A stretch of 64,000 nucleotides of DNA, from assembly GCA_951799425.1 (NCBI GenBank), contig OX637405.1, positions 24,779,635 through 24,843,634 of the forward strand. Reading direction: 5' to 3'. The notes beneath the pieces are model-generated. The model had not been told where the DNA came from and made no database searches. It saw nothing but the letters and a program-made list of their open reading frames with translations. A program made the position numbers and the translations under genes. This document shows, piece after piece, positions 34,926 through 57,063 of this stretch. The DNA is from Ilex aquifolium (Eukaryota; Streptophyta; Magnoliopsida; Aquifoliales; Aquifoliaceae). Positions within the stretch are counted from its first letter, which is position 1, and each line of letters begins with the position of its first letter.

Positions 34926-35073
34926 TGGGTTAATGAGTTTAACTCAACCCGTTATAAACCCAACCTATTATAACCCATTTACTACGTGAGTGAAAAATGG
35001 ATTGAATTTATTTTAGTCCAACTCAATTTAACCTAACCCAAAATCAACCAAACCCACCCATTTGACACCTCTA

Positions 35074-37003
35074 TTTAAATTTATTCAATTAACCCTAAAT
35101 TCATTAAATTAACACCCAAAATCATCCAATAAAGATTCAATTTATCAAATCAACACCACAATCATTCAATTTCGAATTAACATTCAATTCAACAAATTAA
35201 CATTCAATTTCATATAATAAACATTCAATTCATCAAATTAACATTCATAATCAATTTATCAAACCATAGTAATATGCAATTTCATCAAATTAATATGGAA
35301 TTCATCAAATCAACACCAAATTAACATTTAAGTCATTAAATTAACATTCAATTTCTTCTAATAAAAATTAGTTCATCAAATTAACATTCAGTTTCATCTA
35401 ATTAATATTCAATTCATCAAATTAATACCAAATTAACATTCAATTCAATTCAATTGAATAAAAAAAAACATTCAATTCATCCAATTAACACTCAATGCAT
35501 CAAATTAACATCCAAAATATCCAATAAAAATTCAATTGATCAGATCAACACCAAAGTAACATGAAATTTCATCGAATAAACATTTCATTTATCAAATTAA
35601 CATCAAATTAACATTTAATTTCATCTACTAAGTATTCAATTTATCAAATTAGCATTCAAATTCAACTACTTAACATTAAATTCATCAAATTAACATTCAA
35701 TTTCATGAAATTAATATTCAATTCATCAAATTAACACAAAATTAATATTCAAATTCATCCAATTAACAATTAATTCATCAAATTAACATCCAACATCATC
35801 TACTAAAGATTCAATTTATCAAATTAGTACCAAAGCAACATAAATTTCATCCAATAAATATATAATTCATAAAATCAACACCAAATTAACATTCAATTTC
35901 ATCTGATAAGCATTCAATTCATCAAATAAACATTTAAATTCAGCTATTTAACATTAAGTCATCAAATTAACATGCAATTTCATTCAATTAATATTCAATT
36001 CATCAAATTAACACAAAATTAACATTCAATTCATCAAATAAACATTCAATTTTATCTAATAAATATTTAATTCATCAAATTACAATTCAAATTAAACTAG
36101 TTAACATTAAATTTATGAACTTAACATTCAAATTCATCCAATTAATATTCAATTAATTAAATTAACACCAAATTAACATTCAATTCACCCAATTCATATT
36201 CAAATTTATCCAATTAACACTCAATTCAATAAATTAGCATCCAAAATCATCCAATAAAGATTCAATTTATTAAATTAATACCAAAGTAACATGCAATTTC
36301 ATTCAATTATGATTCAATTCATCAAATTAAAAACAAATTAAGATTTAATTCATCAAATTAACATTCAATTTCATCTAATAAACATTCAATTCATCAAATT
36401 AACATTCATACTCAACTAGTTAACATTGAAATCAACAAATTAACCTTCAATTTCATCCAATTAACACATAATTCATCAAAATAACACCAAATTAATGTTT
36501 AATTCATCTAATTAACACTTAATTCATCAAATTAAGATTCAAAATCATCCAATAAAGATTAAATTTATCAAATTAACATGAAATTTCATCTAATTAATAT
36601 TCAATTCATCAAATTAACACCAAATCAACATTCAATTTAATCTAATAAACTTTAAATTCATCAAATTAACATCTAAATTCAACTAGTTAACATTCCATTT
36701 CATCAAATTAATACCAAATTAGTATTCAATTCATCCATTTTATATTCAAATTTATAAAATTAACACTCAATTAAATAAAATAACACAAAAAATAATCCAA
36801 TAAAAATTTAATTTATCAAATCAACACCAGAGTAACACGAAATTTCATCCAATTAAAATTCAGTTCATAAAAATAACATTAAATTAACATTCAATTCATC
36901 AAATTAACTTTCAATTTCAACTAGTTAACGTTAAGTTCATCAAATTAGCATTCAATTTTATCCAATTAACACCCAATTTATCAAATTAACATAAAATAAT
37001 TTT
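35074..37003 (+). repeat. Forward AT-rich tandem array, main segment
   Basis: Short unit about 25-30 bp (ATTCATCAAATTAACATTCA). Over it lies a longer repeat of roughly 250-450 bp, marked by AAAATCATCCAATAAAGATT followed by ACACCAAAGTAACATG. Marks occur near 35110, 35515, 35790, 36240, 36540 and 36790. No protein frame is maintained. Confidence 0.85.
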
Positions 37004-38838
37004 AGAAGTTAATTTGATAAAATGAATATTAATTTGATGAATTGAGTGTTAATTGGATGAATTTAAATATAAATTGGACAAATTGAATGTTAACTTTGTA
37101 TTAAGTTGATAAATTGGGTGTTAATTGGATAAAATTGAATGTTAATTTGAGAAATTTAATGTTAACTAGTTGAATTTAAATATTAATTTGATTTATTGAA
37201 TGTTTATTAGATGAAATTGAATGTCAATTTAGTGTTAATTTGATGAATTGAATATTAATTGGATGAAATTGCATGTTACTTTAGTTTTAATTTGATAAAT
37301 TTAATCGTTATTGGATGATTTTAGATGTTAATTTGATGAATTGAGTGTTAATTGGATGAATTTGAATATAAATTGGATGAATTGAATGTTAATTTAGTGT
37401 TTGGATGAATTGAATGTTAATTTGATGTTAATTTTATGAATTGGGTGTTAATTGGATGAAATTAAATGTTAATTTGATTAATTTAATGTTAACTAGTTGA
37501 ATTTTAACGTTAATTTGATTTATTGAATTTTATTAGTTGAAATTGAATCTTAATTTGATGAATTGAATGTTAATTTGATGTTAATTTGATGAATTAAATT
37601 TTAATTGGATGAATTGAATGTCAATTTGATGTTAATTTGATGAATTTGGTGTTAATTAGATAAAATTGAATGATACTTTGATGAATTTAATGTTAACTGA
37701 TTGAATTTAAATTTTATTTTTATGAATTGAATGTTCATTAGATGAAGTTGAATGTTAAGTTGTTGTTAATTTGATGAATTGAATATTAATTGGATGAAAT
37801 TGTATGTTATTTTGGTGTTGATTTGATAAATTGAATCTTTATTGGATGATTTTAGATGTTAATTTGAGAAATTGAGTTAATTGAATAAATTTGGATATAA
37901 ATTGGATGAATTGAATGTTAATTTGGTGTTAATATGATGAATTGAGTGTTAATTGGATGAAATTGAAGTTTAATTGGATAAATTTAATGTTTTTTTTTGA
38001 ACATGTAAGATTGTATTGCACTATGAATCATTCACAAAATTACAATCAATTGCAACAAAAAGTGAAAGTTCCCTTGGCGGGTTAATAAACCAGTTTGCTG
38101 GAAGAAAATGCTTTTCCTGGAATGCAGCAATCCAATGAGTTGGTTTGTTTTGCTCCAGGAAGTGTGGGCAAAAGTCAAATTAAGGGCCTTGGCATGGTCT
38201 CTAAATGTCTTAAATGAACAGAGTGACCTCTTATGGAGGTACATCTTCTGTCGAACTTAGTTGGATAGTTTTGAAGCTATCTGATTCAACAATTGCATTC
38301 TCTAGATTTAGTTCTTTTGTCAGCAGGCATGGACCCTTACAGCTTGAGCTTCTGAAAATCTACTAGAAACGTAAGGGATGGACTTTGCTTTCCCTTCAAT
38401 TAAATGTTCTTTGTAGTTCCTGATGATCATACCCATTGCTGCCTACTTTGGATTAGTCTGAAAGGCACCATCACAATTGATTTTGAGCCTATTCTGAGTG
38501 GGAGGAGTCCAGCATAGTAGTTGATCCTGATGATTTGCTTCATGCTCCACAGAACAATTTCTTTTCTATTAGTTGAAAGAATCTCCCCCCATGTTGCTTC
38601 GGCCTGACAAATAGTCGCAATGGGATTGAGGTCCTTTTAATGTTCACTAGATGAAATTGAATGTTTATTAGATGAAATTGAATGTTAATTTGATGAATTG
38701 AATCTTAATTTGGTGTTAATTTGATGAATTAAATTTTAATTGGAGGAAATTTCATGTTACTTTGGCGTTGATTTGATAAATTGAATCCTTATTGGATGAT
38801 TTTGGATGTTAATTTGTTGAATTGAGTGTTAATTTTCC
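37004..38838 (-). repeat. Reverse-orientation arm of the AT-rich array
   Basis: From AGAAGTTAATTTGATAAAA onwards the repeats read as the reverse complement of the forward arm: TTAATTTGATGAATTGAATG, with the landmark ATTGGATGATTTTAGATGTT near 37310, 37845 and 38790. It is broken by a LINE tail at 37991-38635. Confidence 0.85.
37991..38635 (-). mobile_element. 5'-truncated LINE, antisense, with TSD
   Basis: It starts with a poly-T run (poly-A on the minus strand) and contains minus-strand RNase H coding similarity (INCDGAFQTNPK, AAMGMIIRNYKE, about 38430-38510). TTTAATGT flanks it at 37983-37990 and 38636-38643. Close to the RNase H region of the LINE at 38839-56385 (INCDGAF there too). Confidence 0.75.
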
Positions 38839-39211: not shown

Positions 39212-40730
39212 ATGTTAGTGCTCTCTTGGAACTGTCAGGGAGTGGGACAACCCCGGACAGTTTGTACATTGCGAGGGCTAATCAACACCCATCGTCCAGA
39301 CATAGTCTTCTTGATGGAAACTGAAAATAAAATAAGGAAAGGTATCCAAATAGCGAGTATGTGGACACTATTGTTTATCTAGTGGATTGGCTCTTTAGAG
39401 TGGTGATTCAATCAAAGGATAGCAACATGATCTACACAAGTTGTTCGTCTCAGAAACATAGGCTGGTATGGCTAACCTCCTTTGTTTATGCAGACCCCAA
39501 ATATGAAAAACGATAGAAGGTATGTCAAGCCCTCAGAAACATTGCCCATAATATGACAGGAGCTTGGTTAATTGCTGGGGATTTTAATATTGTTAATTCA
39601 GTTTGGGAAAAGAAAGGTGGGAGGGTGAAAAATTCAAGGCAAATTGAAGAAATGCAGCAGCTAGTCACGGACTATGGAGTGATGGAGATGGATTTTAAAG
39701 GTCTGAGTTTCACTTGGTGCAACAATAGGCCTAGTGTTGGAAACGTACAAGAAAGGTTGGATAGAGTTCTAGCTAATCCTCACTGGAGAATCATTTTCCC
39801 AAATGTACAGGTCTTTCATGAGTCAATATTTGGGTCGGATCACTGCCCTTTACTCATTAATTTTGGACGTAAACAAAAGAAGGTGCCTTACCAGTTCAAA
39901 TTGGAGGCAATCTGGCTTGAATCAGAATAGTGCGAGGAAAGGCTTAAGAAGAGTTTGGAAGAGGAAATTCAAAACCAGGGCATCCAAAAGAAGTTGGAAA
40001 TCTGTAGCACGAATTTGGCGCAAAGGAGCAGGCAACAGTTTGGTAATAATAAGAAAGCAATAGCAAGGCTTCAAGAGGCTTTACTCAGAATCCAAATAAA
40101 GTAGCCAACCAAGGAAAATTTTCAAGTAGAGAATGAAATTAAAGCCAATCTGGATGCAGCAATGCAAAGGGAGGAGGCGTATTGGCTTATGCGATTGAGG
40201 ATTTATTGGTTGGGGACAGGAGACAAGAATACAAAGTTCTTCAATATGCCAGCAATTCAGAGGAGGCAAAGAAACTAGATTCTCAAAATCAAGAGGAAGA
40301 GGGCGAGTGGTTGGAGAAAGAAGATGAAATAAACGATCATGTCAAGAACTATTTTCAAAAACTTTTCAAAACTATGGGACGGAGGAACCTCACAGATCCA
40401 CTGGATGTGATTCCTTCACTGGTGTCTGACAGAATGAACAATAGGCTCCTGCAACTGATAACAGACCAAGAGGTGCATAAAGCAGCCTTTCAACTGGAAT
40501 CCCTCAAATCCCCAGGCTCCGACAAATTCCAAGGTATCTTCTATAAAAAAATTCTGGCATTTAGTTGGTCAAGAGGTTTGTGATATGGTTAAAAGATTTT
40601 TCATAGATGCTCATTTTCCCCCAAGAATGAACCATACACATATTATACTAATCCCAAAAGAGAAGGCCCATGAAAATATGAAACAATTTCGCCCGATCGC
40701 TTTATGTAATTTTATCTATAAGATTATTTC
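39212..40730 (+). pseudogene. LINE ORF2 part 1: endonuclease and start of reverse transcriptase
   Basis: The start at 39212 gives MLVLSWNCQG, the usual first motif of plant L1 ORF2 endonucleases. A frameshift follows before 39553, from where AGDFNIV, FTWCNN and GSDHCPL supply the later endonuclease motifs (39553-39880). Linker and RT fingers follow in other frames: SLKSPGSDKF at 40498 and FRPIALCNFIYKIIS at 40686-40730, where the gypsy element interrupts it. Upstream, 39030-39210 holds the C-terminal end of ORF1. Several frameshifts make it inactive. Confidence 0.8.
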
Positions 40731-41446
40731 TGATGGTGTAAATCTACGTGAATGAGCTATGGAACCGAATGGTTCATTATGGACGGTCTGCGTGGATTTA
40801 AGTGTTGTATCTGAGCTGCAAGGCTCGTTCTTGATAATGTAGATTGATGGTTAGGGGGTTCGGGGAAAGGGTTGATAGCACGGCGGAAGTATAGTGGTTC
40901 ACCGGCCTGAGCTCGGCTAGTCCACTCTGCAATGGAGTCAGATGGCTCCTCTCTTTCTTATTGATCAAGTTTTGCGTATTACCGTAGGATACACAGGGTA
41001 TTAGGGTTTCTCCTCCTCTCTCTTGTTAGGGCTTGCCCTCCCTTTTTATAGCCTCATGCTTACCTCTAATTCGAAATTATTTCCTTTATTGAAGGGATCG
41101 TGCCCTATCTTCATCTATAACCCTGGAGTTATTTAAACTCCTTAAGGCAGGCTCCCACCGGCGAGATCCTTTCCTTATATCAAGGGATCCTCTCCTTAGC
41201 GTTAGGAGAGGATCCTGGTTAGTTACGGGTTTCATGCCTTGGATCGACTCAATTCCCCTTATTAAAGTATCTACTGTCATCTCGCTGTCCTCCTGTCGTT
41301 TCTCAATTCGTGTTCTCAGCGGGGAGCTCTAGTACCGGCCGGATGAGCTCAGACTATGGCCGGATGAGCTCTGCTTACCTTACCTGAGCTCCTGAGCTGA
41401 GCTCACTTTCTGAGCTCGTGTCTGGGGTTTATTTTAGGTATCATCA
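40731..41446 (-). repeat. 3' LTR of the gypsy element
   Basis: TGATGGTGTAAATC to GGTATCATCA on the plus strand, the same length as the copy at 53174. Carries GGCTATAAAAAGGG on the minus strand near 41040. Confidence 0.93.
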
Positions 41447-41460
41447 GTTGCCCCCCAACT
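41447..41460 (-). other. Polypurine tract
   Basis: Minus-strand AGTTGGGGGGCAAC abuts the 3' LTR, the primer site for plus-strand DNA synthesis. Confidence 0.8.
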
Positions 41461-41624
41461 CTTGCTCTAAGTTAGCTTAGGTAAGAGCTGAACTGCTTCT
41501 CAATCTGAGCTGGATCTACACGTGGTCTCCCTAGGCTTCTCACGTGGCTGAAGATTTTTGACGGTTTACAACAATCATGACTCTCCTCGATTCCCGCGCA
41601 TGTCTCAACCCACGTCCCCCAAGC

Positions 41625-41632
41625 TTTAAATA
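41625..41632 (+). promoter_or_regulatory. Possible TATA box for the first antisense gene
   Basis: TTTAAATA lies 180 bp inside the 3' LTR boundary, pointing towards the gene at 42096, followed by a CT-rich leader with a possible untranslated intron (donor CTAG/GTACGTG at 41836). Position and composition fit, but no start-site evidence is available. Confidence 0.4.
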
Positions 41633-42095
41633 CCCGAACGGCTATCTGAACCGCTTCTTCCACCGTTCAACTTCTTCTCTGTCTTCTAGCTTTCTGTCCT
41701 TGCGAATTCTTGGTTTTCTGTCTTCAGACTTTCTGATTCTCACTCTAAATCGGTTCCCCTGTGTTCGATTTGAAGACCCACAGTGCCACCCCTTCTGATT
41801 TGGCCCTTGGTTTGTTCGTTGCTCTTTTTCCACTAGGTACGTGCTTTCTGCCCCTTTCTTCATTCTGGATCCCTCGAGTTCGAGGTGGTTGTTGCGTTTT
41901 TAGTCCTTTAGGTTCTTTTATTTCTGGAATCGTGATTATTGCTTATCCCCTCTTCCTCGCTTCGTGGGCTGGAGTTCGATTGTGCACATACTCGCTGTTG
42001 GTAGCTATTGTGCTGACCCTAGGGTTATTAGGGAGAGTTTGATCAGTGTCCCCCCTCTTTATCGCTCCTTTAATCTTCCTTTTTCCTGCCCAATC

Positions 42096-44730
42096 ATGTC
42101 TGCCTCCTCCGGTGCTACTAGTTCCTCTGTCTCCTTACTGGGCAATAGGTCTGAGGACACTGATTTAGGAGACGTGGGTGACGAAATTGATAACTTTCCT
42201 GGTGTGGAGGCTGTAGAAACCGAGGTGGGTACCGAGGAGCCTCCCTCTACTTCTTCTCCCATGCCCCCCAGACCTGATAAAGGCAAAGTCAAGGTGAGTG
42301 GAGTCGGGGTTGAAGAGAAGACCTCATATTTGGGGTCGGCCTTCAGGCATGCCGAGTCTGTGGGCTACAGTAAAGAGGCCCCTGAGCTAATGAAGGCTTA
42401 TAAAGTTCGGTATGGTTTTCCTCCTGGGGTCGAACCCTGGTGCCCAGATAGATCCGTCTACTACGTAGAACAAATACGCAATAGGGTCTGTTTCTTCCTT
42501 GCCGCCTTTGACAACGGTCTTCGCTTTCCTCTGCACCCCTTTATTAAAGCTGTTCTGCAACATTTTCATGTGTGCCCTTCCCAGATTTCCCCCAACTTCT
42601 ATGGCGTCATGGTTGGTCTTCTAGTCATTTTTAAGAAGCATAAACTCGGGGTTCCTAGCATTTCTCTGCTTATGGAGCTCTTCAATGTCAAACTGACCTC
42701 CGCTGAAGGTTTTCTGTATATTTCCAAGCGGACTAAAGCTAAGAAAATTATTACTGACCTCCCCTCTTCTCACAAAGCGTGGAAAGAGCATTTCTTTTAC
42801 ATTGGGGGTACCAATTGGGAGTACAATCCTGCTGATAAGACAGATACTCTTGGTATCCCTACGGCTTGGACAGAACCAGACAACTTGGGTGAGTCTTCAC
42901 TTGAGTCGACTGAGCTCTGATCTGGAACTTATAGACCTCTTGCCTTTCTCTTATTTGCACACTTTCTTCTTTTCAGGTGGTCGCCCTGAGCTCAGCCTTG
43001 AAGATCAGAAGGTGCTAGTGAAGTTGGAGAAGATTAAGCCAGAGAGGTACGCCGACCTGATTGAGTCTCGAAATTTGGTGAGGCTAGGTCTGAGTCCTCC
43101 TGCGGTGATCCTAGCTATTCCATTATCTGTTTTAGGGGCTGAAGAAGGTAATTTCATTGTCACTTTCTTTCTCTTCCTTTTTCATCATCTTTCCTTCTCC
43201 TCCTCTTCTTTTTACTCCTCCTCGTTCTATTCAGACCTTCCAAGTCCTTCTACCATGAAGTCTACTCCAGAGGAGCTTCAGGCTAAGGTTGAGGAACTGT
43301 TGAAAGGAGGCAGATCTGGCAAGCGCAAGGCTCGGGTTAGCTCTGGGAGTGGTCCAAACATCCGGGCTAAAATCCCCAGGTTGGAGGTGCCTTCACCCCC
43401 CTCTGCTACCGAAGAACTGGTTCCCAATAAGGCACCGCCTTCCTCATCCAGCACCCCTCAAATTGCCGTTCCTCCTTCCCCTCCGGTGGCCCATCCTGGG
43501 TTGGTGCCTGCTCAAATGGGAGATCAGGCTTCCCCTTCCTCTTCTGAGGTTGAGAAAGCTTTGGGAGTCATCCCTGATCTCCAACCCAGAAAGTTCTCAT
43601 ACACTACTTCTGGGAAAGAGATAAAATCTGAGGGAGAAGACGAGGATTTTTTTGACAACATGGATCTTGCTGCAGGAGCTCTTTCTTCTATTTTTTCTGA
43701 GTCTGATGTCCTGAAGGCTGCTTCTATGCCCCTTGAGGAGTCCATCTCTTCAGCTCTTCAGGGAGCAGCTGCTGTAAGTGCTAGCATTTTCCCCCCTTTA
43801 CTTGTTTTTATTTGGTGATCTGGCGCAATTTACTGAACTTTATATTCTCAGGCTGCCCTCCATGCGAAAGGTCTGCTGCACCGGGTTCGGTCTCAAGAGA
43901 GCTCTTTCAAGGTTCTGAAAACGTATAAAGTCAAGGTTTCTGAATTATCCCTTGAGAACGAAAACCTCAGGGCTCAGAATGAAGACCTCAGGGCTCATGT
44001 GGAGAGCCTCAAAGAGCAAACGGTGAAGCAAGCCTCCGACCTCAAACACACATTAACTGTCAAGTTCAGAGCTGAGGAAGGGGAGAAAAAAGCTCGAGAT
44101 GAGCTAAGGCTAGTTAAGAAGGACCTGCAGCTTAAAGTTGAGGCATGGTCCAAAGCTAGCCAAGAGGCTTTTGATGCCAGGAAAGAGCTCATTCGGGTTA
44201 ACCAAGATTATCTTGCCCTCAACGAGGCAAACGGCAAGCTTTGCGAGGAGCTCGGACAGCAGAAAGATTTGGTCAAACAGAGGGATGACGAGATTGCCGA
44301 GCTAAGAGATGAGGCCACCACTTTATGGGCTACTGGATGTCTTGCCTTTAGGCGCAAAGCTATCCAAGCTTTCCCAGACCTTGACTTCAACTTCCCTATC
44401 CCTACCGAGGAAGAAATGGAAGAGTCTGGCTCTGATCATGAGGTGGATGTCTCGATCCCACCGGCTGCTTCCTTGAGTCAGGACACACCTGCCTCTGGGA
44501 CCTCTGGAGCTCTTATCGTGCGTCCCGAGCCCTCAACTGCGACTTCTGAGCTCCCCACTGTAGATCCTATTTTTCCTGCTGCTATATCGTTTTCAGCCGA
44601 CTTAGTAACTGAGGCTCTTGCTCAGGATCCGGACTCAATGGAAGTAGGGGCTCCAGGCATTTCTTCTGTTGCTGAGGGTTCATCTACCGAGCTGCGAGAT
44701 CCTTCGGCCACCCCTCCTCCAGGAACTTAG
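42096..44730 (+). CDS. Antisense accessory gene A of the gypsy element: exons 42096-42888, 42977-43147, 43235-43773, 43852-44730
   Basis: Splicing three GT-AG introns (88, 87 and 78 bp) gives 2382 bp, 793 residues, without a stop. The start MSASSGATSS was preferred over a longer in-frame start at 41964, whose extension looks like leader. The acidic N-terminus is followed by a domain at about residues 120-240 with GLRFPLHPFIKAVLQHF and CPSQISPNF. I read this as the 'putative gypsy type transposon' / plant mobile domain family (PF04195-like). A basic, proline/serine-rich linker follows (GKRKARV), a possible nuclear signal. A long coiled coil (about 510-640; LSLENENLRAQNEDLRAH) and an acidic, serine-rich tail end it. 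Function is unknown; such proteins accompany Tat-type elements. Gene B downstream is a shorter relative. Confidence 0.75.
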
Positions 44731-45640
44731 GATTTTTAGCTGTAATCTCTTTGTACTTTGAACTTGTGTTTTGGAATATAGACTTCATAGAGCATTTTCT
44801 GAATCTCGCCTTGAATTGTGATATGTAATGTGTTGTGATTTGAGACATGAGCTAGATGGTTTTGTTACAATTTTACTCTTCTGAATTTTCCTCTCTTTTT
44901 GCACTTCCCCCTTCCCCTTTTGCTTCGAGGGGTGCTGTGCACTTCTTGAAGCAAAATTTGATGAGTATAAAAGACTTGGTATTGCGTTCAAGGGCCTCTC
45001 TCTGAGCTACAGGGCTCGAGTTTGTGGACTTAGGACTTCTTGCTGAGCTAAAAGCTCACTCTGAAATGACAATTTTCTATCCCTTTACTTTTCTGATCTT
45101 TTACCTGAGTTTTCTTTTTCTTGTACTTCCCTTATCCCCCTTGCTTTGAGAAGTGTTCCCAACCTTCGTCAAGCAAAACCACGGACATCCTTAGCTGCTA
45201 AACTCTTTCGAGGAACTGAGGGACCCACCAGGAACTTTTCCCTTCTGGAGTGAACAGGGCTCTTGGAACTGTAGGTCTCAAAGACTTGCTACACAGGTGT
45301 TCAGCTTTTGACCGAGCTGAGCTCAAAACCCGAAGAATATTCTACTTGGGTGGGGCCATAATTTTCCTTCGGTTGTTTTGAGTGCAATAGGAGGGTTAAT
45401 CTTGGTTATTTCCATTTCCCGCCTTTTTCCCAACCGTTTTCCATAATCATAACCGTCTTCACTAATTAAGAAACTAAAGGGACAGTCGATATGCTTCTTG
45501 GTTTCCTAAAACTTACAGCCTTCTTTAAGTCTCCTCTAACCTGCTAAGCTTCTTTCTCCTTTGCCAAAAATACTCCTGAATTTCTTCTTGGATTCTTCTT
45601 GATTCTTCGTGGCCATCCTCTGCTTTCTTCGCAAGCTTCA
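44731..45640 (+). other. Spacer between the two antisense genes
   Basis: No gene. TTTGTACTTT occurs 20 bp after the stop, as it also does after gene B, perhaps a 3' end element. Two related segments at about 44897-44960 and 45115-45180 both run from a TTTTT/ACTTCCC start to (A)AGCAAAA; each holds a small hairpin-like pair TTGCTT...AAGCAA. Confidence 0.5.
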
Positions 45641-46731
45641 ATGGCTGCCCCCACTTCTACTCTGTTCCAAGAAAGGACTTCGTTCGGGATTGAATGGACG
45701 TGGCACCGTCGATACTTGATTCCTTCGACCATGGAACCTTCTGATTTAGCGGCCATTAAGAGGCGATTTTTCCCTGATCTTGACCTTTCTCTTAGGGTTC
45801 CTACTCCTGATGAGCCCTGCAGCTTCCTCTCGCGGGGGGAGGTTTGCTTTTTCGAAGGCGCCATGGACATGGGCTTGCGCCTCCCTATTCATCCCGCCAT
45901 AGGGCGTGTTCTTGCCTACTATGGCCTGTGCCCCTCTCGCCTTTCCCCACGAGGATGGGCCGCCATGGTTAGCTTCTTCCTGTTCTGCCGCCTACATGGT
46001 CTCGGCAGGTTCCCTTTTGTCTCTGAGTTTCTATACTTCTTCGAGATCGAAGAAGACGATGCCCCCTGTTTCAGCTTCTTCCATTGGACAAATTTCAAAT
46101 TACGGCCTTTGGTCTTCGGCTTCCCCTCCAATCCTGAAGGATGGTCCAGTCGCTTCTTTTTTGCTTCTGGGGAGTCCTGGCGGTCCCCTGAGGATCGTTG
46201 TCGTGAGGCTAGGATCCCACGGTCTTGGAAGAGCTTCTCTCGCATTGGTAAGTTCTAGCCGACCTTTCTTGTCTGTAAGTTTTTCTTAAATACATGTTCT
46301 TACTACACTCTGATTGTTCAGGTCCCCCTGAGCTAGATGTGCCAGAGATGGTGAGTACTGATAAGTTGCTGCTCGTCGAGCCTAGGTCTTATTCTGAGTT
46401 AATGACGAGTGCAAACCTTTATCTGCTTGGGGCTGAGGCCACTGAATACGAATTTTCCTTTGTCCCCAACCCTTCCTGGACCTCTTTCTCTGATTCTGAC
46501 GAGGAAGGGGATTCTGACGAGGATGGGGATGCTGGTGCCAGCTCGAAGAGGCGTAGGAGGGAGGGCTCTTTTTCCCCTGACTCTCTGTCCACTATCTTTC
46601 TCACTCCGGTAGGTCAGAAGCTTCTTGATTCTCTTTATAAGGCTCAGCAAGAAAGGGACGAGTTGAAGGAAGAGAATGCTCGTCTGAAGGAGGAAGTGGC
46701 TGAGCTGAAGTCCCAGCTTAAGAAGGACTAG
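45641..46731 (+). CDS. Antisense accessory gene B of the gypsy element: exons 45641-46247 and 46322-46731
   Basis: Splicing one 74-bp GT-AG intron yields 1017 bp, 338 residues, starting MAAPTSTLFQ; upstream in-frame codons lack an ATG. The central domain (about residues 60-145) has GLRLPIHPAIGRVLAYY and CPSRLSPRGW, matching gene A's GLRFPLHPFIKAVL and CPSQISPNF, so both belong to the same plant mobile/gypsy-type transposon family. After the intron come PPEL and SYSELMTSANLYLLG (gene A: RPEL and RYADLIESRNLVRLG), an acidic run (DSDEEGDSDEDGD), a basic patch (SKRRRREG) and a C-terminal coiled coil (ELKEENARLKEEVAELK). No stops. Role unknown; possibly DNA or nucleoprotein binding, inferred from the basic patch and coiled coil only. 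Confidence 0.75.
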
Positions 46732-47638
46732 GAGCTCTTCCCCTTTGTACTTTCTTCTTTACTTGAGTGACGCCAAGCTATGACTTTCCTTATATTTTTC
46801 TGAACACTTGTACTGTTGGATACTCTGAATACCAAATCTTTTATTTTTGAATATGCAATTCTTTATGAGCTGACGGGCTCGTTCCGAACTCTGTAAGGTT
46901 ATTTTAGCACGCTCTTCGTGTTCAGAACACGAACGTGAATGGAAAACAGAAGATCATGTTTTGCACTGCCCTTAGTTCCTGACTGATTCCATCGGTCGAA
47001 CCACGAACATTGATGGAAAACAGAAGATCATGTTTGCACTGACCTCAATTCCCAACTGATTTTGTAGCTAATCCCTGCTGTATCAAATATATTGGGGTCT
47101 TCGAGTACGTAGGCAGTGCACAAGGACCACTAGTCGTGGGGGAAAGACTGTTGGTGTCTCCAAGAAGAGACCAGCTTTGAATTCTATGAGCTTAGAGGCT
47201 TGTTGCTTGTGTACGGGCCGAAGAGCTCATCTTGTATTTTATAAGCTTATAAGCTTATCTTTTATTTATGAGCTGAAGAGCTCATCTTGTTCTTTATAAG
47301 CTTAGAAGCTTATCTTTTATTTATGAGCTGAAGAGCTCATCTTCTATTTTATAAGCTTAGAAGCTTATTTTTTATTTATGAGCTGAAGAGCTCATCTTAT
47401 ATTTTATAAGCTCAGAAGCTTATCTTTTATTTATGAGCTGAAGAGCTCATCTTATATTTTATAAGCTCAGAAGCTTATCTTTTATTTATGAGCTGAAGAG
47501 CTCATCTTGTATTTTATAAGCTTAGAAGCTTATCGTTAGCTGTAGAGCTTACTACACATTCCTTTACTTTGGGAATTATATAAGGGTGAATAAAAGACTC
47601 GTTTATTCTTATTAAAACAGCTCTACTACAAGTAACAC
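46732..47638. other. Noncoding region between gene B and integrase, with direct repeats
   Basis: Two copies of a 75-bp segment containing GGAAAACAGAAGATCATGTT (about 46915-46975 and 46990-47045) precede the 55-bp minisatellite. The two convergent transcripts (gene B and gag-pol) must end in this interval. Confidence 0.6.
47223..47540. repeat. 55-bp minisatellite made of two palindromes
   Basis: Six near-identical copies, starting at 47223, 47278 and so on. Each unit contains ATAAGCTTAGAAGCTTAT and ATGAGCTGAAGAGCTCAT, both able to form hairpins, separated by AT-rich spacers. Confidence 0.9.
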
Positions 47639-48751
47639 TTACTGAAAGAACTTCTTAAGGTGTTCGACATTCCAAGAGTGTGGTAGGTCCTTCCCCTCCT
47701 CTGTTTGCAACTCATAGTTCCCTAGTCTGATTACCCTTGATACGATATAGGGTAATTCCCAGTTGGGTCCCAATTTCCCATGCGTGGGATCCTTCCTTGC
47801 AAGCAGAAGCCTCCTAAGTACCAAGTCTCCAGCCTTGAAACTTCTGTACCTTACCTTCCTGTCGTAGTATCTTGCAGTTTTCCTTTGGTAAAGTCGGACA
47901 CGATGCAGAGCTCTTTCTCTCTTTTCATCCAGGAGATCGAGGTTTAATAAGAGAGACTCATCATTGTGTTCGGCATCTGCAAATTCCACCCTTGGTGATT
48001 GGAGCCCCACCTCAACAGGGGCTACTGCTTCGGTCCCAAAGGCCAAAGTGAAGGGGATTTCCTGAGTTGCTGACCTGACGGTGGTCCTGTAGGCCCACAA
48101 TACCTCAGGGATGTACTCCACCCACTTGCCTTTTAGGTTTTCTAATTTAGTCTTCAGAGCTGTCTTTATGGTTCTGATTGTGACCTCTGCTTGCCCATTG
48201 GATTGAGGGTGTGTAGGAGCTGAGAAATAGTTCTTTATCCCAAGCTCAGCACAAAAGCTCTTAAATTTTGAGTTGTCAAACTGCTTCCCATTGTCAGACA
48301 CGACTGCTCTGGGAACCCCAAATCTGCAAACTATCGATTTCCAAACGAAGTTTTGGACTTTTTGTTCGGTGATTGTTGCCAAAGGTTCGACCTCCGCCCA
48401 CTTGGTGAAGTAATCCACCCCTATAATAGCAAACTTGCATTGTCCCACACCGGTGGGAAGGGGTCCAAGAATATCCAAACCCCACTGTTGGAAGGGCCAG
48501 GGGCTCACCACCGAGGTTAGCAGCTCGGGTGGACAATGGGAAACATTGGCATGCTCCTGGCAAACCTTGCATTTTTTTACTAAATCGGTGGCGTCTTTGA
48601 GCATGGTTGGCCAATAATATCCTTGTCTTAGTACTTTTCCTGCCAAGGCCCGAGCTCCTATGTGATTGCCACATATCCCCTCATATACTTCTCTGAGTAT
48701 ATAGTTGGCACTTTCATCTCCCACGCACTTGAGGAGAGGCGTTGAGAACCC
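47639..48751 (-). CDS. Gypsy integrase
   Basis: Inserts the cDNA copy into the genome. The zinc-binding H-H-C-C region (HIGARALAGKVLRQGYYWP, then CKVCQEH) is followed by the D-D-E core: LDILGPLP, VVSDNGKQFD and HPQSNGQAEVTIR. It continues to a C-terminal GDLVLRR segment and ends LKKFFQ. It is in the same frame as the upstream RT and follows a UAG at 48752-48754, so it has no obvious start of its own; the first ATG-like option is inside the region. It is complete in length and motifs. Without readthrough of the UAG it would not be made. Confidence 0.9.
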   Translation of the reverse strand, partial: GFSTPLLKCVGDESANYILREVYEGICGNHIGARALAGKVLRQGYYWPTMLKDATDLVKKCKVCQEHANVSHCPPELLTSVVSPWPFQQWGLDILGPLPTGVGQCKFAIIGVDYFTKWAEVEPLATITEQKVQNFVWKSIVCRFGVPRAVVSDNGKQFDNSKFKSFCAELGIKNYFSAPTHPQSNGQAEVTIRTIKTALKTKLENLKGKWVEYIPEVLWAYRTTVRSATQEIPFTLAFGTEAVAPVEVGLQSPRVEFADAEHNDESLLLNLDLLDEKRERALHRVRLYQRKTARYYDRKVRYRSFKAGDLVLRRLLLARKDPTHGKLGPNWELPYIVSRVIRLGNYELQTEEGKDLPHSWNVEHLKKFFQ

Positions 48752-50962
48752 CTATTTGTATAGATTTCCTTGCAACAAGGAAAATCTAGCTGACCTAGTC
48801 CTCAGCTTGGAAGCCTCCTTGGCATCGCTTGGCAGAGTCCCATTCTGCAAATACCCGATGATGGGGTCCATCCAACCCGGCTGAGCTCCGATTGATAGTA
48901 TATTTTCTTCTTCGAAACTTACTGAAGGTTCTGGAAGGTGCTCTACTGGTATTAGCCTATCCAAATCTTCTTGTGAGGCCGTTGCTAACCTCGCCAATGC
49001 ATCTGCTCGCGCGTTCTCTGCTCTAGGCACGTGTCTGACCTTAACCTGCACAAATTTCTTTATTAATTCTCGTACCTTTCTGAGATAAAGAACCATCTTT
49101 TCGCCTCTCGCTTCGTAGGACTCCTCTATCTGCTTTACCACCAGTTGAGAGTCACTGCAGAGCTCCAGCTGCTCTGCTTCCATAGAATAAGCAAGATTGA
49201 GCTCAGCGATGACAGCTTCATATTCTGCTTCGTTATTTGAAGCCTTGAACCCAAATCTAAGGGCATACTCGACATCTATTCCTTCTGGGGAGGTTAAGAT
49301 CATTCCTGCACCGCTTCCCTGAGCATTGGCAGCTCCATCTACTGAAAGCCTCCATACGGGGAGGTCTGGTATTAAACCTGTGGTCTCCATGGGCGCTGCT
49401 GCTGCGAACTCTGCAATGAAATCCGCCAAAATTTGCCCTTTAATGGCAGTTCTTGGCTTATATCTGATGTCAAACTCACTGAGCTCTATGGCCCATTTAA
49501 CCAACCTCCCCGAGGACTCTGGCTTATGTAGTACTTGCTTCATCGGCTGGTCTGTTGGAACCTCGATAGTATGAGCCTGGAAATAGGGCCTGAGTCTTCT
49601 GGCTGTTGTCACCAACGCTAAGACGAGCTTTTCCATCTTTGGATATCTCTCCTCTGCCCCTCTCAGAGCTCTGCTACAGTAATAGACTGGTTGCTGAGCT
49701 CTGTCTCGCTCCCTAACCAGCGCTGCACTAGTCGAAAAATCTGAAACTGTCAGGTAGAGAGTAAGGACTTCCCCTTCTAAAGGGCTCACCAGAACAGGAG
49801 GAGAGCTCATATAATCTTTCAGGGCTTTAAACGCTTCTTCGCACTTGGCATCCCACTGGAACGCCTTTTTTAGTATCTGAAAGAATGGCTGGCATTTATC
49901 ACTTGATCTAGACACGAAACGGCTCAAGGCAGCTATCCTGCCTGTCAAGCGTTGCACCTCCCTTGTGTTGGATGGTGATTGCATCTCCATCATTGCCCTG
50001 ACCTTCTCTGGGTTGGCTTCAATCCCTCTGCTGCTAACTATAAATCCCAGGAATTTTCCTGCCGAGACCCCAAATGCGCACTTCGCAGGGTTGAGCTTCA
50101 TTTTGTACTCCTTTAGAATCTGGAATGATTCGGCTAGGTGGTCAATGTGGAGCTCTGCTTTTAGTGATTTCACCAGCATGTCATCGATGTAAACTTCCAT
50201 GGAAGCTCCTATTTGTTTTTGGAACATCCTATTCACCAATCGCTGGTAAGTGGCTCCGGCGTTCTTTAACCCGAAAGGCATGACCTGATAACAGTATGTT
50301 CCTTGCTCAGTTACAAAGGAGGTCTTCTCTTGGTCATTGGGGTCCATCCTGATTTGGTTGTAGCCTGAGAAGGCGTCCATGAAGCTAAGGAGCTCATGCC
50401 CGGCAGTGGCGTCCACTATCAGGTCAATCCGAGGTAATGAGAAGCTATCTTTGGGGCATGCTCGGTTGAGATCAGTGAAGTCAATGCACAATCGCCACTT
50501 TCCATTGGTTTTCTTTACAAGAACCACATTTGCTAACCAGGTGGGGTAATCAACCTCCCTGATAGCCTCGGCATGGAGGAGTTTGCTGACCTCCACATTG
50601 ATTGCCCTTTGTCTTTCAGAGGCAAAGCTCCTCCTCTTCTGTTTGATGGGTTTGCAGGTTGGGTTCACGCATAGCTTATGGGTAATAACCGAAGGGTCAA
50701 TTCCTTCCATGTCTTCTTGCTTCCAAGCAAACACTCCTATATTCTCTTTTAGGAACTGGACGAGGATACTTTTGAGCTTTGCGTTTAGTCTGGAACCCAC
50801 ATAAACGAGGTGTTCTGGCTCTTCATCAAGCTGTATTGGTTCCAGCTCTTCCGATGACATTGGTCTTGTCTCCATTTCATCTCTCATGTCGAGTTCATCT
50901 AATTGGATGTTCTCAACCTCCTTCCTTTTTACAGAGGCCATATAGCATTCTCTTGCTATATG
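48752..50962 (-). CDS. Gypsy reverse transcriptase and RNase H
   Basis: Copies the element RNA into DNA and degrades the RNA strand. RT motifs in order: NGKWRLCIDFTDLNRACPKD, VMPFGLKNAGATYQ, the catalytic VYIDDMLVKS (50170-50200), and KCAFGVSAGKFLGF. Then a connection region with YCSRALRGAEERYPKMEK, and a second RNase H-like region with VDGAANAQGSGAGMI (49310-49350) and a later LCSDSQLV. Two RNase H-like segments (a decayed one after RT and an active-looking one) are known in Tat elements. The frame is continuous with gag-protease except for one UAG at 50963-50965; M at 50941 (MASVKRKEV) is the first methionine after it. Confidence 0.93.
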   Translation of the reverse strand, partial: HIARECYMASVKRKEVENIQLDELDMRDEMETRPMSSEELEPIQLDEEPEHLVYVGSRLNAKLKSILVQFLKENIGVFAWKQEDMEGIDPSVITHKLCVNPTCKPIKQKRRSFASERQRAINVEVSKLLHAEAIREVDYPTWLANVVLVKKTNGKWRLCIDFTDLNRACPKDSFSLPRIDLIVDATAGHELLSFMDAFSGYNQIRMDPNDQEKTSFVTEQGTYCYQVMPFGLKNAGATYQRLVNRMFQKQIGASMEVYIDDMLVKSLKAELHIDHLAESFQILKEYKMKLNPAKCAFGVSAGKFLGFIVSSRGIEANPEKVRAMMEMQSPSNTREVQRLTGRIAALSRFVSRSSDKCQPFFQILKKAFQWDAKCEEAFKALKDYMSSPPVLVSPLEGEVLTLYLTVSDFSTSAALVRERDRAQQPVYYCSRALRGAEERYPKMEKLVLALVTTARRLRPYFQAHTIEVPTDQPMKQVLHKPESSGRLVKWAIELSEFDIRYKPRTAIKGQILADFIAEFAAAAPMETTGLIPDLPVWRLSVDGAANAQGSGAGMILTSPEGIDVEYALRFGFKASNNEAEYEAVIAELNLAYSMEAEQLELCSDSQLVVKQIEESYEARGEKMVLYLRKVRELIKKFVQVKVRHVPRAENARADALARLATASQEDLDRLIPVEHLPEPSVSFEEENILSIGAQPGWMDPIIGYLQNGTLPSDAKEASKLRTRSARFSLLQGNLYK

Positions 50963-53110
50963 CTAGTCTCCTCGGACTGCTCCGATTCCATTTTCTGTAG
51001 GGAATTTTACGACTAAGTGATAGGCTGATGGGATTGCCTTCATGGAATTAAGGGATGGCCTTCCAAGCAGGATGTTGTATGCAGAGGGTGCATCGACCAC
51101 TAGGAACTTTACGGTTGTGGTGGCTTGGCAAGGTGGGTCCCCTAGGGTGAGCACGAGTTGGATCGAGCCCAGAGGGAGCACCCTTTCTCCGGAGAACCCC
51201 AGCAAGTGAGTGTGCACAGGTTCAAGTTTCTCTCTTCCTATGTCCATTTTGTCGAATGCAGGTGCGAAAATGATATCTGCCAAGCTTCCGTTATCGACTA
51301 GAACTCGATGAACGGTTCTGTTAGCCACCACGGCTCGCACCACCAACGGATCATCATGAGGGTACTGACATCCCTCCAAATCAGCATCTGAGAAAGTGAT
51401 AACTGTATCTAAGCGTGGCGCTTTGGATACAGCGTGCACTTCGAGAGCCTCTTCGGCTCTGATCAGTCGAAGGTGTGCTTTCCTAGCTGAGCTAGATTCT
51501 CCACCTCCTGCGAACCCTCCAGATATTACTCTGATCTCACCTAGAGGCTGCTGATGTGGTGCAGGTGCCGGCTGCCGAGGTGGTGGAGGTGGGAGAGCTC
51601 GATTCTGATCGTCATGAGCCACAAAACGGCGTAGCTGACCTCGCTGGATCAAGAACTCGATTTCCTTTTTTAGTTGAATGCAGTCATCAGTGTGGTGACC
51701 ATGATCCCTGTGGTAATCGCAGTACTTTGTGGGGTCTCTCTTGGCTGGATCTGCCTTCATCCGGGGTGGCCATCTCAGGAACTTCTCGTTTTGGACCTCA
51801 TACAGAACTTGTGACACAGCGGCAGTGAGTGGGGTGTATTGTTGAGGTCCGTACCTGGGCTGCAGCTCGGGCTGCGGGGGGCCCAGGCGATCTCTGACAT
51901 TTCCTCTTCTCTTTGGCGAGCGGTCCCTATCCCTTCTCGGAGACCTCTCTCGTCCTTTTTCCTTCTTGGGACTCCGGTCCCTTCTTTTTTCTTCTTTCTC
52001 CTTCTTCTTCCCTGAGGATGTACCCCTTACTTTGGAAAGGAGTGCCTCTTCACCGTTTATATATTTCTCTGCCTTGGCTAGCACCTCAGCCATGCTGGCC
52101 TGAGGGTTCTTCGATATGGAAAACATTAGATCCTTTGATTGTACTCCCAATCCTGCAATAAAGGCAGTTATGACGAATTTTTCGTCTGGAACGTCTACTT
52201 TTAGTGTCTCTGAGTTGAACCTTTGGACATAAGACCTCAGGTTTTCTTGAGGCCCCTGTTTCACATTCAGCAGGTGGTAGCTCGGTTTTCGGTATATCCG
52301 GGCTCCTATAAAATGAGATACGAAAGCTATGGAGAGCTCTTTGAAGGATGAGATCGAGGCTGGTGGGAGCCTGTGAAACCAGGCTAGGGCGGAGCCTTTT
52401 AGTGTGATGGCGAAAGCTCTGCAACGTACAAGATCCTGGTATCCATGTAGCTCCATCTGATTCTTGTAAGTGTTGAGATGATCTACGGGATCTTTTGTTC
52501 CGTCAAAGACCTCTATTTGTGGCATCCTGAACTTTGGTGGGAGAGGAAAGTGCAGCATCCCAGTGGTGAATGGGGACTCGGTTTGTTGCACCAAGACGTC
52601 CATTGTAACCGGAGCTTTGCTTCTTACAGCCTCCTTCATGTGGCTGAGCTCTTGCTTTATGTCTTTGAAGCGCTGCTCCCAGTGTTGCTCTCTCTTGTCT
52701 TGCGAATAAGGGAAAAAATCGTCCCTCTCGCCCCCATCGTTCTGACTTTGCACTTCCTCGTTGTGGCCATTCCTAGGGGGTAGGTAGGGAACATGTCCCC
52801 TGGTCTGGCTGCTTTCTCCTCCTTCGTTGACCTCTCTAAGGGGGTCCCAGGGTCGTTGTTCCCTATGAGGGGGATTATTCTGGCCTTCTTGGGCCGGTCG
52901 TGCCTCCTGCGGGCGCTGTATGAGCTTTGATAACTCTGCATTTTCCTTTAGCAAGCGTTGGTTAACGAGGCGAAGGGCCTCCATCTCGTTATTAATGGGG
53001 GAATTGGCCTCTTGGACGTTCCCAGGTTGCTTGCCGTTGGTGGCTTCCTGCTGATCCTGCATTCGTGGTAGGTTTGTTTGACTTCTGCTCATATTTCGAG
53101 TTGTTAACAT
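50963..53110 (-). CDS. Gypsy gag and protease
   Basis: Forms the particle and matures the polyprotein. The start MLTTRNMSRS lies 63 bp from the 5' LTR edge, just beyond the primer site. A helix-rich and glutamine-rich N-terminus is followed by the retrotransposon gag core (SALAWFHRLPP, LNVKQGPQENLRSYVQRF; about residues 230-370) and a very basic KKKEKEEKRRDRSPKKEKG linker. A zinc-knuckle-like CDYHRDHGHHTDDC follows near residue 475, then the aspartic protease VLVDNGSLADII at about residue 610. The frame ends with UAG (50963-50965), after GAVRGD; translation past it continues straight into a polymerase-style ARECYMASV. No other defects are seen. Confidence 0.92.
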   Translation of the reverse strand: MLTTRNMSRSQTNLPRMQDQQEATNGKQPGNVQEANSPINNEMEALRLVNQRLLKENAELSKLIQRPQEARPAQEGQNNPPHREQRPWDPLREVNEGGESSQTRGHVPYLPPRNGHNEEVQSQNDGGERDDFFPYSQDKREQHWEQRFKDIKQELSHMKEAVRSKAPVTMDVLVQQTESPFTTGMLHFPLPPKFRMPQIEVFDGTKDPVDHLNTYKNQMELHGYQDLVRCRAFAITLKGSALAWFHRLPPASISSFKELSIAFVSHFIGARIYRKPSYHLLNVKQGPQENLRSYVQRFNSETLKVDVPDEKFVITAFIAGLGVQSKDLMFSISKNPQASMAEVLAKAEKYINGEEALLSKVRGTSSGKKKEKEEKRRDRSPKKEKGRERSPRRDRDRSPKRRGNVRDRLGPPQPELQPRYGPQQYTPLTAAVSQVLYEVQNEKFLRWPPRMKADPAKRDPTKYCDYHRDHGHHTDDCIQLKKEIEFLIQRGQLRRFVAHDDQNRALPPPPPRQPAPAPHQQPLGEIRVISGGFAGGGESSSARKAHLRLIRAEEALEVHAVSKAPRLDTVITFSDADLEGCQYPHDDPLVVRAVVANRTVHRVLVDNGSLADIIFAPAFDKMDIGREKLEPVHTHLLGFSGERVLPLGSIQLVLTLGDPPCQATTTVKFLVVDAPSAYNILLGRPSLNSMKAIPSAYHLVVKFPTENGIGAVRGD

Positions 53111-53152
53111 CAGTCACTGAGAGATCAGCTTATTTGTAAATAAGAACAGTCG

Positions 53153-53170
53153 TTCCCACAGACGGCGCCA
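53153..53170 (-). other. Primer-binding site of the gypsy element
   Basis: Minus strand TGGCGCCGTCTGTGGGAA, three bases after the 5' LTR. This wording is common in plant Tat/Athila-type elements; the tRNA is left unnamed. Confidence 0.8.
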
Positions 53171-53173
53171 AAC

Positions 53174-53889
53174 TGATGGTATAAATCTACGTGAATGAGC
53201 TATGGAACCGAATGGTTCATTATGGACGGTCTGTGTGGATTCAAGTGATGTATCTGAGCTGCAAGGCTCGTTCTTGATAATGTAGATTGATGGTTAGGGG
53301 GTTCGGGGAAAGGGTTGATAGCACGGCGGAAGTATAGTGGTTCACCGGCCTGAGCTCGGCTAGTCCACTCTGCAATGGAGTCAGATGGCTCCTCTCTTTC
53401 TTATTGATCAAGTTTTGCGTATTACCGTAGGATACACAGGGTATTAGGGTTTCTCCTCCTCTCTCTTGTTGGGGCTTGCCCTCCCTTTTTATAGCCTCAT
53501 GCTTACCTCTAATTCGAAATTATTTCCTTTATTGAAGGGATCGTGCCCTATCTTCATCTATAACCCTGGAGTTATTTAAACTCCTTAAGGCAGGCTCCCA
53601 CCGGCGAGATCCTTTCCTTATATCAAGGGATCCTCTCCTTAGCGTTAGGAGAGGATCCTGGTTAGTTACGGGTTTCATGTCTTGGATCGACTCAATTCCC
53701 CTTATTAAAGTATCTGCTGTCATCTCGCTGTCCTCTTGTCGTTTCTCAATTCGTGTTCTCAGCGGGGAGCTCTAGTACCGGCCGGATGAGCTCAGACTAT
53801 GGCCGGATGAGCTCTGCTTACCTTACCTGAGCTCCTGAGCTGAGCTCACTTTTTGAGCTCGTGTCTGGGGTTTATTTTAGGTGTCATCA
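53174..53889 (-). repeat. 5' LTR of the gypsy element
   Basis: Same length as the 3' LTR with about 10 substitutions. The upstream (U3) part contains six GAGCTC sites in 100 bp (53764-53862). Confidence 0.93.
53486..53493 (-). promoter_or_regulatory. TATA box in the gypsy 5' LTR
   Basis: Minus strand GGCTATAAAAAGGGAGG, about 320 bp before the end of the LTR, as expected for an LTR promoter driving gag-pol. Confidence 0.65.
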
Positions 53890-53894
53890 ATTTC

Positions 53895-56364: not shown

Positions 56365-56385
56365 GATGAAATGGAATTGAATTGT

Positions 56386-56835: not shown

Positions 56836-57063
56836 TCATGGGCCAATTTGTGGATTAGATTCAAGCTTACGGTGATCAAGTATTGAAATTTTATGCATCA
56901 TGGATTCGTAGATCAGGGAATAATGTTGCTAAATATGCTATTTCTTGTAAGGATGGTGTAGTAGAGAGGATATCCTAGAGTTTGTAATATATGCTCTCCA
57001 TGACGATATCTCTAGTATTTAATCTATAACAATTTCATCGTTTCTTATAAAAAAAAAAAAAAA
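56836..57063 (+). mobile_element. Short LINE 3' tail with poly-A
   Basis: Unique sequence ending TTTCTTATAAAAAAAAAAAA, inserted in the array, which resumes briefly with GAACATGAATGTTAATTTT. The coding match is weak; the A-tail and position suggest a heavily truncated LINE. Confidence 0.55.

What the first reader, a model, noticed from the sequence alone, without database searches (positions are those of the whole stretch)
42096..46731. Two diverged, spliced antisense genes in one gypsy element, with an intron at the equivalent point
Genes A and B both carry the same domain (GLRFPLHP...CPSQISP against GLRLPIHP...CPSRLSP). Both have a phase-1 intron ending just before G(x)PEL, the same following motif (RYADLIESRNLVRLG against SYSELMTSANLYLLG), a coiled-coil C-terminus, and TTTGTACTTT shortly after the stop. 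This points to an old duplication of a whole spliced gene within a retrotransposon. Single extra antisense frames are known in Tat-type elements; a pair with retained introns in a young copy is unusual. A retroelement's own RNA is unspliced for antisense introns, so introns on this strand survive reverse transcription. That explains how they persist.
Basis: partly seen in the sequence, partly recalled or inferred. Interest (0 to 1): 0.8.

Follow-up and report, generated by a model that had tools for sequence, protein, structure and literature searches.

The report
Paired spliced antisense genes in retrotransposon
A common jumping element of this plant genome carries, on the strand opposite to its own replication genes, two distantly related genes whose introns and protein-coding frames are kept by selection from copy to copy, which suggests that it makes two spliced accessory proteins of still unknown function.

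Summary
The window contains a structurally complete Retand-type (Tat, Ty3/gypsy) element on the minus strand (LTRs 40731-41446 and 53174-53889, 10 differences in 716, 5-bp target duplication). Between integrase and the 3' LTR lie two plus-strand genes, both matching Pfam Transposase_28 (TRP28): A (4 exons, 793 aa) and B (2 exons, 338 aa). In 40 further copies, chosen for a word in A, both genes are present (40 of 40); the four introns keep GT-AG apart from one lost acceptor, while their lengths vary. In the spliced frame dN/dS is 0.23 (A) and 0.14 (B) between subfamilies, against 1.1-1.6 in shifted frames. A third TRP28 lineage about 30% identical has an intron at the same point and phase, so the intron is old. 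An A-only family also exists, and A and B reassort between families, so 'duplication inside one element' is possible but unproven. The shared TTTGTACTTT is not a kept feature. A single antisense TRP28 gene is a published Retand hallmark; that it is spliced and comes as two selected paralogues I did not find in print. No RNA evidence was available. Function (nuclear regulator, HBZ-like) is inference.

The parts
40731..41446 (-). 3' LTR of the element (element reads on the minus strand), 716 bp; 5-bp target duplication ATTTC just outside (40726-40730)
   Evidence: 706 of 716 positions equal to the other LTR; same 5 bases flank both ends
41447..41465 (-). purine-rich stretch next to the 3' LTR, candidate polypurine tract
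   Evidence: minus-strand reading ends AGTTGGGGGGCAAC before the LTR; by eye
42096..42888 (+). gene A exon 1 (start codon; carries TRP28/PF04195 at 42486-42692)
42889..42976 (+). gene A intron 1, phase 1, 88 nt; equivalent to the gene B intron; evolves slower than other introns
42977..43147 (+). gene A exon 2
43148..43234 (+). gene A intron 2, phase 1, 87 nt
43235..43773 (+). gene A exon 3 (basic NLS-like KRK at residue 351)
43774..43851 (+). gene A intron 3, phase 0, 78 nt
43852..44730 (+). gene A exon 4 (coiled coil around 43927-44019), stop at 44728-44730
45641..46247 (+). gene B exon 1 (start codon; TRP28/PF04195 at 45842-46048)
46248..46321 (+). gene B intron, phase 1, 74 nt, same alignment point as gene A intron 1
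46322..46731 (+). gene B exon 2 (NLS-like KRRRR at residue 278, coiled coil around 46633-46725)
47126..47565 (.). tandem array, 55-bp period, between gene B and integrase; arrays are reported in about half of Retand clusters
   Evidence: family D7; PMC11963269
47639..48751 (-). integrase ORF (Integrase_H2C2, rve)
48752..50962 (-). RT, RNase H and second RNase H (RVT_3) ORF; in-frame TAG separates it from integrase
50963..53113 (-). gag ORF; ends at an in-frame TAG
   Evidence: only Retrotrans_gag matched; no protease family at E 0.001
53174..53889 (-). 5' LTR, 716 bp; target duplication ATTTC at 53890-53894; primer-binding-like TTTGGCGCCGTCTGTGGGAAC follows on the minus strand
   Evidence: primer site by eye

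Best explanation
The element is a Retand-lineage Ty3/gypsy retrotransposon whose long pol-to-3'LTR region holds a two-gene antisense module. Each gene is most likely transcribed on the strand opposite to gag-pol, spliced by the host (three introns in A, one in B) and translated into a TRP28-plus-coiled-coil protein with a basic NLS-like patch. Shown by comparative sequence: gene structures, homology of A and B, shared ancestral intron 1, presence of both genes in every one of 40 copies examined, purifying selection in the spliced frame, reassortment of A and B between families. Inferred: that splicing really occurs; nuclear location; that the two proteins bind nucleic acid and may pair through their coiled coils; and that they regulate the element's own transcription or the nuclear step of its cycle in trans, working like the spliced minus-strand proteins of HTLV (HBZ, APH-2). 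The introns persist because the RNA that is reverse transcribed is the opposite strand, on which they are not recognised as introns.
For: Exact gene models and A/B homology across the junction; PF04195 in both; element anatomy with second RNase H between RH and integrase and intact ends. 40 copies: A 40 of 40; B 38 of 40 in the 5-kb stretches (6 of them cut short) and the other 2 in extended stretches. Splice sites: A introns 1 and 2 GT and AG in 41 of 41 rows, intron 3 GT 41 of 41, AG 40 of 41; B intron GT-AG in 40 of 40. With gaps set aside, other GT and AG dinucleotides are kept on average in 68% and 67% of copies in A, 59% and 66% in B. dN/dS between subfamilies: A 0.23 (617 pairs), B 0.14 (443 pairs); shifted frames 1.12-1.58; within subfamilies 0.29 and 0.22, shifted frames 0.78-1.18. 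Indels in A exons are multiples of three in 244 of 318 cells, in A introns in 23 of 108; in B exons 4 of 7, in the B intron 16 of 31 (cells not events). Intron 1 at the same column in A relatives L064 and L066, in B and in the third lineage L065, and by eye in L067. A listed B lies 2.9-6.1 kb downstream on the same strand for 41 of 149 A hits and 3.2-4.3 kb for 18 of 150 PF04195 hits.
Against: No transcript data at all: splicing, promoters and protein are inferred. Many copies seem broken (A passes a strict intactness count in 14 of 41 rows; the count is sensitive to alignment ends). NLS and coiled coil rest on simple pattern scans. The structure models were too poor to use (pLDDT 39.8 and 32.9). 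The 40 copies all carry an exact A 24-mer, so the sample is chosen for A and for this family. Some ordinary GT/AG dinucleotides are also fully kept (19 of 114 and 26 of 204 in A, 13 of 50 and 20 of 70 in B). Free reassortment of A and B argues against a tightly matched A-B partnership.
Confidence: 0.78

Rival explanations
1. B did not arise by duplication of A inside one element; A and B are old members of separate TRP28 lineages brought together by recombination (template switching) between Retand families.
For: A and B groupings disagree; window versus L047, L035 and L066 shows A and B with different nearest relatives; a third lineage is about equally far from both (28% and 29%); A-only family.
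Against: Recent reassortment says nothing about first origin; shared intron and shared domain order fit duplication equally well; with three lineages an unrooted tree cannot decide.
Confidence: 0.45
2. The proteins act at the pre-integration complex (nuclear import or target choice) rather than in transcription.
For: Coiled coil, NLS-like patches; a role in nuclear entry or regulation is discussed for Retand/Grande antisense proteins in PMC7264820.
Against: No Pfam family other than PF04195 reached its cut-off in any exon; nothing here separates this from a transcriptional role.
Confidence: 0.3
3. The antisense RNA itself (double-stranded RNA, small RNA) is the functional product and the frames are passengers.
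For: Antisense transcripts of plant retroelements may feed silencing, as discussed in PMC7264820.
Against: dN/dS of 0.14-0.23 in the spliced frame against above 1 in shifted frames between subfamilies; conserved splice sites.
Confidence: 0.04
4. The introns are misread degenerate sequence and the frames are chance open stretches.
For: Introns are short (71-106 nt) and no RNA was seen.
Against: Same four GT-AG pairs in 40 copies at median intron identities of 65-90%, and intron 1 read base by base in two A relatives about 55% identical, whose matches also break at the points of introns 2 and 3.
Confidence: 0.02

Closest known systems
Antisense TRP28 (PF04195) ORFs of Retand elements (Vicient 2025, PMC11963269, abstract, sections 3, 11, 12 and passages; Retand ORF4, RIRE2, Grande gene23 via PMC7264820, parts 1 and 2 of 3)
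   Same: Same Pfam domain, same place between pol and 3' LTR, same orientation, long internal region, tandem arrays nearby; Smc-like antisense ORFs
   Different: Here two TRP28 genes per element, both with introns, with selection measured; the 2025 paper's main text never uses the word intron and counts ORFs, so exons of one gene may have been counted as separate ORFs
HTLV-1 HBZ and HTLV-2 APH-2
   Same: Minus-strand accessory genes transcribed from the 3' LTR side, spliced; HBZ has a C-terminal bZIP (PMC3391691 passages); both nuclear (PMC11963269 section 3)
   Different: No sequence relationship tested or expected; single gene; HBZ transcription starts in the 3' LTR, whereas the start of A and B transcription is unknown (the A start codon is 650 bp from the LTR)
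Ogre elements (Tat): extra ORFs with plant mobile domain, and a sense intron between gag-pro and RT (PMC6317226 passages)
   Same: Sister group in Tat, extra ORFs, splicing known in the element
   Different: Ogre's published intron is on the sense strand; its extra ORF carries another domain (pfam10536), not found here

Membership tests
Retand lineage (Tat, Ty3/gypsy) | Ty3/gypsy order gag, RT, RNase H, integrase | tested here: met
   on three separate ORFs; no protease family matched at E 0.001
Retand lineage (Tat, Ty3/gypsy) | second RNase H between RH and integrase (Ogre/Retand) | tested here: met
   RVT_3/RNase_H at residues 541-660 of the RT ORF, after RT_RNaseH and before integrase; criterion from PMC6317226
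Retand lineage (Tat, Ty3/gypsy) | long pol-3'LTR region (2.9-6.6 kb) with antisense TRP28 ORF | tested here: met
   6.2 kb between integrase stop and LTR; PF04195 in both genes; range from PMC11963269
Retand lineage (Tat, Ty3/gypsy) | place in the RT/RH/INT phylogeny | not tested
   no reference plant elements could be fetched with these tools
TRP28 (PF04195) protein family | score above the curated cut-off | tested here: met
   A 32.8, B 40.6 bits, cut-off 26.2
HBZ-like minus-strand retroviral regulators | spliced minus-strand transcript | not testable with these tools
   gene models and comparative data only; no RNA
HBZ-like minus-strand retroviral regulators | bZIP domain | tested here: not met
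   bZIP families only far below their cut-offs; no membership is claimed, only a similar way of working
Ogre lineage | plant mobile domain extra ORF | tested here: not met
   no plant mobile domain match in any exon of A or B at E up to 10 (HMMER's filters drop most very weak matches)

The most novel reading that the evidence does not exclude
The spliced form is ancestral to the antisense genes of the Retand lineage: TRP28 genes carried intron 1 before A, B and the third lineage split, and the separate antisense ORFs (TRP28 and 'Smc'-like) listed in surveys are largely exons of single spliced genes. Some families then hold two such genes as exchangeable modules, encoding a pair of nuclear proteins whose combination is reshuffled between element families.
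Probability: 0.5. Interest if true: 0.7.

Novelty: new variant of a known kind. Interest (0 to 1): 0.6.

Why it matters
[quoted passage not shown] Evidence that they are multi-exon genes changes how they must be annotated and cloned, makes RNA detection straightforward (spliced reads prove strand and product), and gives a natural explanation of how introns can live inside a retroelement. A deep shared intron also bears on origin: it fits capture of an intron-bearing gene in antisense orientation, or at the DNA level, better than capture of a spliced sense mRNA, though later intron gain is not excluded. Reassortment of the two genes between families makes it testable whether they work together.

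Tried and rejected
Rejected: TTTGTACTTT as a relic of duplication. A first look found it in 4 of 40 stretches, once each, but many stretches end before the B stop; recounted where readable it is exact after A in 2 of 39, after B in 2 of 13, after both in 0 of 12. 131 of 20000 shuffles of the two post-stop stretches share some 10-mer, so the match in the window is uncommon but was picked after the fact. Absence of B in L028 and L043 was an artefact of 5-kb stretches; B was found in L055 and L056. The splice count for B had misaligned rows from six cut copies, so I recounted with separate anchors (40 of 40). That recount showed exceptions in A: L028 intron 1 (wrong hit), L023, L028, L030 intron 2 and L029 intron 3 (off by a base or so); the full alignment shows GT/AG in those rows; L015 intron 3 is a real acceptor loss. 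The dinucleotide control counted gaps and cut ends as losses, so repeats it without them. One search used only part of the hit list; one search repeats it with all 150 PF04195 hits (same result, 10 of 17). Structure prediction of both domains gave unusable models, so no fold search was run. PDB sequence search gave only weak matches with a two-row profile (best E 0.0049), taken as chance. Relatives were sought with B exon 1 in viral contigs (none) and with an A-B alignment in genome contigs (none). An A-B-C tree was not built, since three unrooted lineages cannot date the duplication. Papers sought by id and not held: (meant for Steinbauerova and colleagues' survey of extra ORFs, recalled only; it may already mention introns).
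Full report
What the window holds. The stretch 40731-53889 is one structurally complete LTR retrotransposon on the minus strand. Its LTRs are 716 bp each and differ at 10 positions; the same five bases ATTTC flank both ends. With the often used plant rate of 1.3e-8 per site and year (recalled, not from a call) this is roughly half a million years. Three separate sense ORFs give gag, then RT with RNase H and a second RNase H, then integrase; no protease family matched. A second RNase H between RH and integrase is the published mark of Ogre and Retand (PMC6317226, passages); antisense TRP28 is the published mark of Retand (PMC11963269, abstract, sections 3, 11, 12 and passages). No RT tree was made, so the lineage name rests on these features. 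The sense frame is broken by stop codons at 50963 and 48752; the first may be normal for Retand, where gag and pol are on two ORFs in 26 of 63 published clusters (one search gives one ORF in 37).

The two genes. Between the integrase stop and the 3' LTR, on the plus strand, lie gene A (42096-44730, four exons, 793 aa) and gene B (45641-46731, two exons, 338 aa). All introns are GT-AG, 74-88 nt. The spliced proteins align over 235 aa with 29% identity, E 1e-30, straight through the intron point. Each first exon alone matches Pfam PF04195 above the curated cut-off. In both proteins the intron splits a glycine codon in phase 1 just before (G)xPEL.

Are the genes real? The window's own genome (800 Mb, 103 contigs) could be searched. 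A 24-base word from gene A occurs 126 times, against none for the reversed word. I fetched 40 of these places (of 100 listed) as 5-kb stretches. A is present in 40 of 40; B in 38 of 40 (six of them cut short by the stretch), and in the remaining 2 once longer stretches were read. The copies fall into several subfamilies; median identity to the window is 78-86% per exon and 65-90% per intron. The splice sites hold: A introns 1 and 2 in 41 of 41 rows (window included), A intron 3 donor 41 of 41 and acceptor 40 of 41, B intron 40 of 40 copies. Intron lengths meanwhile vary between 71 and 106 nt. Other GT and AG dinucleotides of the same regions are kept, gaps set aside, in 68% and 67% of copies on average in A and 59% and 66% in B; 19 of 114, 26 of 204, 13 of 50 and 20 of 70 of these are also fully kept, so it is the set of all eight sites, not one, that is telling. 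Between subfamilies dN/dS in the spliced frame is 0.23 for A (617 pairs) and 0.14 for B (443 pairs with at least 150 codons; six B rows were cut short); frames shifted by one or two bases give 1.12 to 1.58. Within subfamilies it is 0.29 and 0.22, shifted frames 0.78 to 1.18. Pairs are not independent, but the contrast is large. Exon by exon the ratio is 0.16, 0.24, 0.24, 0.27 in A and 0.12, 0.19 in B. So both genes have been kept as spliced proteins while the element multiplied. Many single copies seem broken now: A passes a strict count (length a multiple of three, no internal stop) in 14 of 41 rows, a count that alignment ends can lower.

How widespread, and one gene or two? Only the best 150 of 7833 (A), 7233 (B) and 5837 (PF04195) first-look candidates are scored by the tool, so full counts are unknown. 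Among these lists, leaving out the window itself, 44 of 149 A hits have a listed B hit downstream on the same strand within 20 kb, 41 of them 2.9-6.1 kb away; on the opposite strand there are 4, upstream 1. For PF04195 hits it is 19 of 150, 18 of them 3.2-4.3 kb away, against 2 and 3. Three distant loci were read as 8-kb stretches. L066 has an A 56% identical over its first part (about 50% after) and a B 91% identical to the window's. L064 has an A about 55% identical and no B: a tandem array and then integrase follow the A stop; intron 1 was read base by base in both, introns 2 and 3 appear as breaks of the match at the same points. The L064 copy is itself broken. A 24-base word at its array-integrase junction occurs 17 times; 10 of 17 places have a listed PF04195 hit 2.6-3.4 kb upstream on the same strand (L064 among them), none of the 17 has a B hit from the capped list within 20 kb, and 7 of 17 could not be judged. 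So one-gene and two-gene families very probably live in the same genome. L065 is a third lineage with one TRP28 gene in the stretch read, 28% identical to A and 29% to B; L067, L068 and L071 belong with it.

The shared intron is old. In L065 the similarity to A and to B ends at the intron point, where a phase-1 GT-AG intron of 66 nt lies; the split residue falls in the same alignment column in A, B, L064, L066 and L065. That L065 copy has a stop codon soon after the junction and is left as it is. In L067 the same junction is followed by an open exon 2 resembling those of A and B (by eye). Introns 2 and 3 of A have no counterpart in B.

Duplication or exchange? The two genes of one element do not share one history. 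Window versus L047: three A exons 94-99%, B exon 1 82%. Versus L035: A 86-90%, B 97.5%. Versus L066: A 62-68%, B 90% (ten copies compared). A and B are therefore modules that recombine between families. This makes 'duplication of a whole spliced gene within a retrotransposon' one possible origin only; the alternative, that B joined from another Retand family, is about as likely. The decamer TTTGTACTTT after both stops is not kept in copies and is evidence for neither.

How it most likely works. Where transcription of A and B begins is unknown; the A start codon lies 650 bp from the LTR. In maize Grande the antisense gene23 has its own promoter upstream of the gene and its product is nuclear (PMC7264820, parts 1 and 2 of 3 read). 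Both proteins here combine TRP28, a basic patch and a coiled coil. I think they are nuclear, nucleic-acid-binding regulators of the element, possibly forming homo- or heterodimers, comparable in way of working with HBZ and APH-2 of HTLV, which are spliced minus-strand genes (PMC3391691, passages). This functional step is inference. The introns survive because the RNA that is copied into DNA is the other strand; none of 40 copies has lost one.

What is new. Antisense TRP28 ORFs are known. In the papers I could search (listings; most subscription papers are not held) I found no report that these genes are spliced or come as two TRP28 paralogues; the 2025 survey's main text has no occurrence of 'intron'. 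It lists 104 antisense ORFs in 63 clusters, some TRP28 in short ORFs and 11 Smc-type domains; by analogy with gene A, where domain and coiled coil lie on different exons, part of these may be exons of one gene. That is a prediction, not tested here. I rate this a new variant of a known kind.

Noticed in passing
42889-42976: Gene A intron 1 differs between subfamilies less (0.151 per site) than introns 2 and 3 (0.266, 0.306) and than fourfold sites of the exons (0.21-0.35); cause unknown, perhaps a signal on either strand.
   Followed up: partly
L064 6357-6890: In the A-only copy a roughly 42-bp unit, related to the spacer after gene A in the window, is expanded into a tandem array just before integrase.
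   Followed up: partly
35000-38000 and 56300-57900: AT-rich minisatellite-like arrays in opposite orientations on both sides of the element region, with extreme GC skew at 35001-38000.
   Followed up: no
20808-24916 (-), 30408-31172 (+), 57980-64000 (+): ORFs that look by eye like a Ty1/copia element, a BED-finger hAT-type transposase and a LINE with RT and RNase H.
   Followed up: no
16313-19547 (+): Exons that look by eye like a beta-tubulin gene.
   Followed up: no
G000: Thousands of first-look TRP28 candidates in the genome, including groups of many places with identical scores and frame length, which suggests recent bursts. The PF04195 control also rang in E. coli, below the cut-off.
   Followed up: no
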